Source of the DNA: Candidatus Poribacteria bacterium
GTDB taxonomy: Bacteria; Poribacteria; DTPJ01; WJIO01
Direction: 5' to 3'
Assembly (NCBI GenBank): GCA_014730235.1
Contig: WJIO01000195.1
Location: forward strand, 1-13,922
DNA length: 13,922 nt
Part shown: positions 7,708-8,669 of the stretch, piece after piece
Layout of the letters: the number at the start of each line of letters is the position of its first letter
How positions within the stretch are numbered: the stretch's first letter is position 1
Translations under genes and position numbers: made by a program
The notes under the pieces: model-generated
Database searches by the model: none
Told to the model about the DNA's origin: nothing
What the model saw: only the letters and a program-made list of their open reading frames with translations

Positions 7708-7739
7708 AAGATCAGAAAGCAATATTTAGTAAATATTAT

Positions 7740-7860
7740 GGCTCTTGCTGGTTCAGTGTTGTTATAATTGAAAATTCTCTCAGCTTTGTTATTCCTGCCT
7801 TTGCAGGGATGACAGCATAAAGAAGTTTCTTGTCTTTAAAACACTGAACCTGGAAGAACC
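7740..7860. mobile_element. Miniature inverted-repeat element (MITE), copy A, 121 bp
   Basis: The element starts GGCTCTTGCTGGTTCAGTG and its other end is the inverted match GGTTCTTCCAGGTTCAGTG; over 21 terminal bases 18 pair. It is flanked by a perfect 8-bp direct repeat, AATATTAT, at 7732-7739 and 7861-7868, the mark of transposition. The centre is a hairpin, ATTCCTGC-CTTT-GCAGGGAT (7791-7810), with one mismatch. No transposase is encoded, so it needs one in trans. The GGCTCTTC-type tips with 8-bp A/T-rich duplications recall ISL3-family ends; that link is inference. Copy B lies at 8536-8658 in the opposite orientation, with 77 of 81 core bases identical. Confidence 0.85.
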
Positions 7861-7952
7861 AATATTATTAAAGCTCTTATAATTAAGTAATTAAGCTTGT
7901 TTATTGATGACCCAAGGATCAAATAAAAAAACTACACAAGGATGTGATAACA

Positions 7953-8531
7953 GTGAGGTATTCGCATGTTTTGGTAATATGTGTTACTTTTACTGTATTC
8001 GCTTTTTCCTCTGTGTTTCCTCAAGACAACCAGATATTTATTCCCGAACCTGAAATTTGTCCTACCGATAATAATGAATCTCCGTTAGATTTAGACTGGC
8101 TTGTTGAGCGTTATGATCTGGACTGGATAGAACAGCATTTCGATCAATATTACGGGGAATATTACAAGCCCTGTGAGGATTTTATTAATAATAAACCCAG
8201 AGAAATTGCTGGTAAATTTGGATTGAGTAATATATTTGTGGATCCAAATTTTCAGAGATATGAGGATACTAAATTAGTTCTGAGCAGGAGTTTCTGGGAT
8301 AAAAAGTTTGTTTTTAAATACTATGCTCCAGTAGGGGATTTAACGAAGTTCAGCTTATCTGTTTCTATAAAACCATATGATTCAGTCAGCTTTATAGCAA
8401 AAGGTGATATAGACGGAGATTTTAGTATTGCTATTCTAGCAAATAGGCCTTTAGGACGGCTAAAAAAGGAACCGGAGGAATTAAGGCGTATCAAGCAATA
8501 CCTTAATAATGCCAAAGGTGTACTTTATTAA
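7953..8531 (+). CDS. Orphan exported protein of unknown function
   Basis: I do not recognise this protein of about 192 residues. It opens with a signal peptide (basic RYSH, then hydrophobic VLVICVTFTVFAFSSVF). The mature part begins with an acidic, aromatic region holding two DLDW units (DLDWLVERY, DLDWIEQHF) and a tyrosine-rich stretch (DQYYGEYYKP), then alternating hydrophobic strands (residues about 105-165: KLVLSRSF, KFVFKYY, FSLSVSI, SVSFIAKG, FSIAILA), which suggests a beta-sheet domain facing the periplasm or outer membrane. I favour GTG 7953 because AAGGA at 7938-7942 lies ten bases upstream; GTG 7944 is in frame but too close to that SD. The gene is alone between two inverted MITE copies. 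Codon use is like its neighbours. Confidence 0.7.
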   Translation: MRYSHVLVICVTFTVFAFSSVFPQDNQIFIPEPEICPTDNNESPLDLDWLVERYDLDWIEQHFDQYYGEYYKPCEDFINNKPREIAGKFGLSNIFVDPNFQRYEDTKLVLSRSFWDKKFVFKYYAPVGDLTKFSLSVSIKPYDSVSFIAKGDIDGDFSIAILANRPLGRLKKEPEELRRIKQYLNNAKGVLY

Positions 8532-8535
8532 ATTT

Positions 8536-8658
8536 GGCTCTTCCGGGTTCAGTTTGTTAAAGACAAGAAACTTCTTTATGCTGTCATTCCTGCAAAGGCA
8601 GGAATAACAAAGCTGAGAAAATTTTCAAATTATTACCATACTTAAAACCGGAAAAGCC
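8536..8658. mobile_element. Miniature inverted-repeat element (MITE), copy B, 123 bp, inverted relative to A
   Basis: This copy begins GGCTCTTCCGGGTTCAG; its right end inverts to GGCTTTTCCGGTTTT, with 12 of 15 terminal bases matching. It is flanked by a perfect 8-bp direct repeat, TTAAATTT, at 8528-8535 and 8659-8666; the first copy contains the stop codon of the preceding gene. The central hairpin ATTCCTGCAAAGGCAGGAAT (8586-8605) has a perfect 8-bp stem and an AAAG loop. Bases 8546-8626 match copy A (7770-7850, reverse strand) with four differences and no gaps. It lies between convergent genes and has no coding capacity. Confidence 0.85.
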
Positions 8659-8669
8659 TTAAATTTTAG

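What the first reader, a model, noticed from the sequence alone, without database searches (positions are those of the whole stretch)
7732..8666. Two independent insertions of one MITE, in opposite orientation, each with its own 8-bp A/T-only target duplication
Copies at 7740-7860 and 8536-8658 match at 77 of 81 core bases, have GGCTCTTC-type terminal inverted repeats and carry perfect duplications AATATTAT and TTAAATTT. Different duplications mean separate events, so this is an actively spreading or recently spread non-autonomous family. Its centre is a dRS3-like ATTCCTGC...GCAGGAAT hairpin, a unit widespread as an unexplained intergenic repeat in other genomes; here it sits inside a bona fide transposable unit with defined ends. 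The tips and duplication size recall ISL3-family elements, but the driving transposase is unknown.
Basis: partly seen in the sequence, partly recalled or inferred. Interest (0 to 1): 0.72.

Follow-up and report, generated by a model that had tools for sequence, protein, structure and literature searches.

The report
Abundant ISL3-type MITE carrying REP hairpins
The two repeats are separate insertions of a short parasitic DNA element that has about 400 copies in this bacterium, was probably moved by an ISL3-type transposase, and carries in its middle a common bacterial hairpin repeat (a REP) that has no known transposase of its own, so the hairpin seems to have spread here mainly as a passenger.

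Summary
Copies lie at 7740-7860 and 8536-8658, match at 77 of 81 core columns, and have perfect, different 8-bp duplications. The rest of the genome settles the class. Tip sequences occur 1,024 times (control 0), giving about 420 tip-paired elements, roughly 1.1% of the genome. Of 109 examined, 46 have a perfect 8-bp duplication (0.25% expected) and no other duplication length appears. The target is TA[AAAWWTTT]TA, and 103 of 109 are intergenic. Tips (GGYTCTTCCGG) and duplication size fit ISL3: ISL3 elements elsewhere carry GGTTCATCCGG or GGTTCTTCGCGG. No full-length ISL3 partner was found. Two corrections. First, it is an old burst, not a recent one: copies average 92% identity to the consensus. 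Second, the central hairpin is a separable passenger, a CGTC-type REP. Eight of the 109 elements lack it, and two of these hold other hairpins. A second MITE family with 5-6 bp duplications carries the same REP, and hybrids join arms of the two families at it. In an unbiased sample 63 of 67 REPs sit beside a MITE tip (3% of random positions). In the one relative of the same order, REPs are solitary and MITE-free. New variant of a known kind.

The parts
7732..7739 (.). left target-site duplication of copy 1, AATATTAT
   Evidence: perfect match to 7861-7868
7740..7860 (+). MITE copy 1 (family M1), 121 bp, tips GGCTCTTGCTGG / GGTTCTTCCAGG
   Evidence: nhmmer match over the full model, both ends coincide with the family; 89% identical to consensus; RNA fold -47.4 kcal/mol, z -6.7
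7791..7810 (.). central CGTC-type REP hairpin ATTCCTGCCTTTGCAGGGAT
   Evidence: family identified from PMC3733652
7861..7868 (.). right target-site duplication of copy 1, AATATTAT
8528..8535 (.). left target-site duplication of copy 2, TTAAATTT; it contains the TAA stop codon (8529-8531) of the ORF 7944-8531
8536..8658 (-). MITE copy 2 (family M1), 123 bp, tips GGCTCTTCCGGG / GGCTTTTCCGGT
   Evidence: 89% identical to consensus; RNA fold -36.9 kcal/mol, z -5.0
8586..8605 (.). central CGTC-type REP hairpin ATTCCTGCAAAGGCAGGAAT
8659..8666 (.). right target-site duplication of copy 2, TTAAATTT

Best explanation
Each copy is a non-autonomous DNA transposon (MITE) of about 120 bp. A DDE transposase, most likely of the ISL3 family, bound the roughly 22-bp terminal inverted repeats (GGYTCTTCCGGGTTnAGTGTGG) in trans. 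It inserted the element into palindromic A/T-rich sites (TA[AAAWWTTT]TA), duplicating 8 bp. The two window copies are two such events. The centre is a passenger CGTC-type REP hairpin, captured by the MITE and multiplied with it. Because the same hairpin sits in many elements, it also became the point where arms of different elements, including a second MITE family, were joined. Shown: family, ends, duplications, target preference, separability of the hairpin, and hybrids. Inferred: ISL3 as the driver, capture of the REP by the MITE, and the recombination route of the hybrids.
For: Tips: 1,024 matches genome-wide, control 0; about 420 tip-paired elements, 1.1% of the sample. Duplications: 46/109 perfect and 20/109 at 7 of 8, against 0.25% and 2.6% for mismatched flanks; symmetric target consensus; length 8 only. 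Intergenic: 6/109 overlap an ORF of at least 100 aa, against 89% of random 120-bp stretches. ISL3: three PF01610 fragments in the genome, with ends GGTTCATCCGG (L009) and GGATTCATCCGGG (L011). ISL3 elements elsewhere: Pseudodesulfovibrio GGTTCATCCGG, duplication CTAATGGT; Vibrio GGTTCATCCGG, duplication CATTTAAG; Pseudomonas GGTTCTTCGCGG / GGTTCATCGCGC, duplication 7 of 8. Some MITE tips carry the A variant, GGCTCATCC. IS1595, another 8-bp family, is absent. Hairpin as passenger: 8/109 elements lack it, 4 of them without any REP and with perfect duplications (L020:1233-1332, L028:243-333, L041:11380-11551, L104:5513-5592), and L100:10844-11005 and L015:6748-6854 hold other hairpins. 63/67 REPs in the unbiased sample lie within 170 bp of a MITE tip, random 3%. 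In relative G001 REPs are solitary with canonical heads and CCA tails, and there are no M1 MITEs.
Against: No intact ISL3 element with the exact tip GGTTCTTCCGG was found; position 6 is mostly T in the MITE and A in the local ISL3 ends, and similarity beyond the first 11 bp is weak. Two of the three ISL3 fragments lie on contigs (C342, C236) with unusual G+C that may not belong to the genome. Hairpin-free elements could be deletion products, not ancestors: some junctions lie at 2-3 bp microhomology and one hairpin-less M2 copy keeps a REP remnant. About 40% of elements lack a recognisable duplication. Only one genome of the lineage is held, so no polymorphic insertion could be shown.
Confidence: 0.8

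Rival explanations
1. The REP hairpin is the mobile unit (moved by a RAYT-like tyrosine transposase), and the outer arms are only the palindromic targets it prefers, as reported for some REPs in Anabaena variabilis and Halothiobacillus neapolitanus.
For: REPs inside longer palindromes are described (PMC3733652 section 7). REPs also occur solitary in G001 and in a few places here. Different hairpins occupy the centres of a few M1 elements.
Against: The outer arms are themselves repeated with defined ends and 8-bp duplications, also in elements without the hairpin. The only Y1 transposase found (C236) is an IS200 type not flanked by these hairpins. The hairpin is usually at one place within the arms, as expected from co-amplification. 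It may still explain how the REP first entered the MITE.
Confidence: 0.1
2. A genuine MITE, but driven by a transposase family other than ISL3 that also makes 8-bp duplications (IS256, IS66, ISAs1, IS1595 or an undescribed one).
For: No intact partner with identical ends was found in the assembly. Several families make 8-bp duplications (own knowledge).
Against: IS1595 is absent from the genome. GGTTC[T/A]TC tips plus an 8-bp duplication were seen directly in ISL3 elements from other bacteria. IS256, IS66 and ISAs1 were not searched; their usual tips differ (own knowledge).
Confidence: 0.15
3. The elements are kept because they work as RNA hairpins (terminators or mRNA stabilisers) rather than as parasites.
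For: Both window copies fold far better than shuffles. Copy 2 starts 4 bp after a stop codon. The family is almost wholly intergenic.
Against: Copies lie in tandem, divergent and convergent intergenic regions without a preference for gene ends. They are lineage-specific and absent from the relative in the same order. Palindromes fold well by construction. Duplications mark transposition.
Confidence: 0.1
4. The two copies are remnants of one larger inverted-repeat element enclosing the 195-aa ORF 7944-8531.
For: They are inverted and flank one gene.
Against: Each has its own, different, perfect duplication, and hundreds of single copies exist.
Confidence: 0.01

Closest known systems
ISL3 family insertion sequences (e.g. 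Pseudodesulfovibrio plasmid paDPRO copy; ISAeme19 group)
   Same: Tips GGTTC[A/T]TC(C/G)..., and 8-bp duplications where both ends could be paired.
   Different: M1 has no transposase; its sub-terminal sequence is not shared with any ISL3 element examined.
QMITE2 of Coxiella burnetii (PMC5896051)
   Same: A MITE with TIRs and unique 7-11 bp duplications that contains a REP.
   Different: GTAG-type REP, 78 copies, and the REP is a target of IS1111; here a CGTC-type REP, about 420 copies, and two MITE families sharing the REP.
CGTC superfamily REPs (dRS3-like; Rickettsia RPE-4/6 and others; PMC3733652)
   Same: 8-bp stem beginning with AT, 4-base loop, (T/C)GTC head; often head-to-head dimers. 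No dedicated transposase known.
   Different: Usually solitary with a CCA tail (as in G001); here mostly symmetric GTC...GAC and enclosed by MITE arms.
Large bacterial MITE families: ERIC (711 copies in Photorhabdus), Correia, Chunjie (PMC10969869)
   Same: Short, intergenic, hairpin-forming, tens to hundreds of copies.
   Different: Described with other ends and duplications; no sequence comparison was made here.

Membership tests
MITE (non-autonomous DDE transposon) | terminal inverted repeats with constant ends | tested here: met
MITE (non-autonomous DDE transposon) | target-site duplication of fixed length at each copy | tested here: met
   8 bp; 66/109 with at least 7 of 8 matching; no other length
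MITE (non-autonomous DDE transposon) | many dispersed copies without coding capacity | tested here: met
   about 420 elements, 72-206 bp apart from one 382-bp pair
MITE (non-autonomous DDE transposon) | mobilised in trans by a related transposase | not testable with these tools
   needs an experiment or polymorphic strains
ISL3-derived element | GGYTCTTC-type tips of ISL3 elements | tested here: met
   10 of 11 bases shared with ISL3 ends of Pseudodesulfovibrio and Vibrio and with local fragment L009; the tip alone is short
ISL3-derived element | 8-bp duplication | tested here: met
ISL3-derived element | a full-length ISL3 relative with the same ends | tested here: not met
   only three PF01610 fragments in the genome; no tip-bounded element of 300-3000 bp with at least 7/8 duplication in 0.5 Mb. 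The assembly is incomplete, so this lowers the claim of direct descent rather than excluding it
IS1595-derived element | IS1595 transposase in the genome | tested here: not met
   PF12762 absent
CGTC REP (the central hairpin) | 8-bp stem beginning AT, 4-base loop, (T/C)GTC head | tested here: met
   against PMC3733652
CGTC REP (the central hairpin) | CCA-type tail | tested here: inconclusive
   a minority of MITE-borne copies and the solitary copies in G001 have it; most MITE-borne copies end GAC
RAYT-mobilised REP | RAYT gene flanked by the repeat | tested here: not met
   single Y1_Tnp hit, IS200-like, not flanked by the hairpin

The most novel reading that the evidence does not exclude
CGTC-type REPs, which lack a known transposase, can spread as passengers in the centres of DDE-driven MITEs. 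Once shared by several MITE families they act as exchange points where arms are swapped, producing new MITE types. If general, REP-within-palindrome cases in other genomes would be REP-carrying MITEs.
Probability: 0.35. Interest if true: 0.65.

Novelty: new variant of a known kind. Interest (0 to 1): 0.47.

Why it matters
How CGTC-type REPs disperse without a dedicated transposase was left open in the paper that defined them (PMC3733652). This genome offers a concrete, testable route: hitch-hiking inside MITEs, with two unrelated carriers and hybrids as traces. The family is also among the more abundant MITEs reported for a bacterium, with a sharply defined target consensus.

Tried and rejected
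IS1595 as driver: no transposase. RAYT as driver: only an IS200-type gene on a contig that may be foreign. Search of 38 related genomes: no family member, only the hairpin in G001 and G003. A score for pairing of sequences 60 bp either side of REPs did not separate MITE-borne from random positions and was not used. Copy estimates from the first sample were biased towards copies, so contigs C1-C62 were used for rates.

Full report
CHECK OF THE OBSERVATION. The window reads as described: copies at 7740-7860 and 8536-8658, flanked by AATATTAT and TTAAATTT respectively, each duplicated perfectly. Aligned in opposite orientation they match at 107 of 123 columns, and the best 81-column stretch has exactly 77 matches. 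Copy 2 begins four bases after the stop codon of the 195-aa ORF 7944-8531, and its duplication contains that stop codon.

THE FAMILY. Searched against its own genome (G000, 5.53 Mb in 451 contigs), copy 1 finds dozens of copies. A 22-base tip pattern with two mismatches has 509+515 matches against 0 for the reversed control. I took about 1.02 Mb of stretches, in which contigs C1-C62 other than C15 and C24 (0.487 Mb of readable sequence) were taken without regard to copies. A tip matrix finds 109 tip-paired elements in all and 37 in the unselected part. That extrapolates to about 420 in the genome, 1.1% of the DNA. The consensus is 120 bp, ends GGTTCTTCCGGGTTTAGTGTGG, and is itself nearly palindromic.

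DUPLICATIONS AND TARGET. Of 109 elements 46 have a perfect 8-bp duplication and 20 match at 7 of 8; left and right flanks of different elements give 0.25% and 2.6%. Under strict tips, exact duplications occur at length 8 (20 cases) and never at lengths 4-7 or 9-13 or at shifted offsets. The target, symmetrised, is TA[AAAWWTTT]TA. Only 6 of 109 overlap an ORF of at least 100 aa, against 89% of random 120-bp stretches.

AGE. Elements of 115-125 bp are on average 92% identical to the consensus (range 78-97%), the closest sampled pair is 97.5% identical, and both window copies are 89%. Among elements with a recognisable duplication the two copies differ at about 6% of sites. This is an old, decaying burst; present activity is not shown and cannot be tested with one genome.

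DRIVER. Two facts point to the ISL3 family: the 8-bp duplication and the tips. The genome has three ISL3 (PF01610) fragments, all at contig ends; readable ends are GGTTCATCCGGTTAATG (L009) and GGATTCATCCGGG (L011). ISL3 elements on plasmids have GGTTCATCCGG with duplication CTAATGGT (Pseudodesulfovibrio), GGTTCATCCGG with CATTTAAG (Vibrio), and GGTTCTTCGCGG / GGTTCATCGCGC with a 7/8 match (Pseudomonas). So both T and A at position 6 occur in ISL3 ends, and a few M1 tips have A. No tip-bounded element of 300-3000 bp with at least 7/8 duplication appears in the unselected sample, and IS1595 is absent. ISL3 is therefore the best-supported driver, but its partner has not been found. Contigs C342 and C236 have G+C above the bulk of the sample and may be foreign; C391 (L011) does not.

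THE CENTRAL HAIRPIN. ATTCCTGC-N4-GCAGGAAT with a (T/C)GTC head fits the CGTC superfamily of REPs, which 'apparently lack a dedicated transposase' (PMC3733652). It occurs 672 times in G000 with up to one mismatch. It is a separable part of M1. Eight of 109 elements lack it, four of them without any REP and with perfect duplications. Two elements hold a different hairpin at the centre: GTAGGGACACGG...CCGTGTCCCTAC at L100:10844-11005 and CGGGAGGG...CCCTCCCG at L015:6748-6854. Element lengths step through 120, 141, 162-164, 182-186 and 203-206, largely because the REP loop is extended by a further hairpin or replaced by a head-to-head REP dimer.

A SECOND CARRIER AND HYBRIDS. Many REPs not in M1 lie in another MITE family, M2: ends GTAATCGTTAAAAAATG, 235 tips genome-wide against 0 in the control. 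Twenty M2 pairs include 8 with exact 5-bp and 4 with exact 6-bp duplications, where about 0.1 or fewer are expected; the different duplication length implies a different transposase. Of 67 REPs in the unselected sample 33 lie between two M1 tips, 6 between two M2 tips, 6 between an M1 and an M2 tip, 18 beside one tip and 4 beside none. So 63 of 67 have a tip within 170 bp, against 3% of random positions. Hybrids run, for instance, M2 tip - M1 arm - REP dimer - M2 arm (L112:11168-11368) or M1 arm - REP - M2 arm (L042). Nested insertion followed by deletion between two REPs, or crossing-over at REPs, would both give this; the data do not decide.

COMPARISON GENOMES. G001, the only other genome of the order found here, has no M1; its REPs are solitary, with canonical TGTC heads and CCA tails, and share no sequence beyond the REP. 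In M1 most REPs are symmetric (GTC...GAC), as would result if a head-to-head dimer collapsed to one unit (inference). The simplest history is that REPs were present in the ancestor, were captured in the G000 lineage by a MITE, multiplied with it, and passed to a second MITE family by exchange at the REP.

WHAT IS KNOWN. REP-in-MITE has a precedent in QMITE2 of Coxiella (PMC5896051), and REPs inside palindromes are reported for A. variabilis, T. roseum and H. neapolitanus (PMC3733652 section 7). Bacterial MITEs of hundreds of copies are known (ERIC, 711 in Photorhabdus; PMC10969869). I found no paper in the held library on ISL3-driven MITEs of this kind, which does not prove there is none. The element is thus a new variant: an abundant ISL3-type MITE that, with a second family, carries nearly all CGTC REPs of its genome.

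Noticed in passing
L118:13166-13290, L120:808-931, L035:1087-1209 and others: Second MITE family (M2), TIR GTAATCGTTAAAAAATG, 5-6 bp duplications, 235 tips genome-wide, also carrying the CGTC REP.
   Followed up: partly
L012:5109, L030:6739, L033:168, L036:2899, L041:11622, L042:6100, L109 and others: An outer repeat, AAGCATAAAATTTATGTCCGTGAAAACTTT, abuts the M1 tip of one M1 subfamily at ten loci: M1 inserted in a third repeat family that then spread, or a composite palindrome.
   Followed up: partly
L037:2590-2730, L020:896-1057 and others: The REP loop is often extended by another palindrome (TTCAAGCTTTTTCAAAAAGCTTGAA, or a 45-base version), giving concentric palindromes that grow at the centre.
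   Followed up: partly
L100:10911-10938: A GTAG-type hairpin (GTAGGGACACGG...CCGTGTCCCTAC) replaces the CGTC REP in an M1 element with a perfect duplication; only one such hairpin in the unselected sample.
   Followed up: no
contigs C342 and C236 (L124, L125): Higher G+C than the bulk of the sample; ISL3 fragments and an IS200 gene; possibly foreign to this genome bin.
   Followed up: partly
window 7944-8531 (+): 195-aa ORF between the two MITE copies, no Pfam match; its stop codon lies inside the duplication of copy 2.
   Followed up: partly
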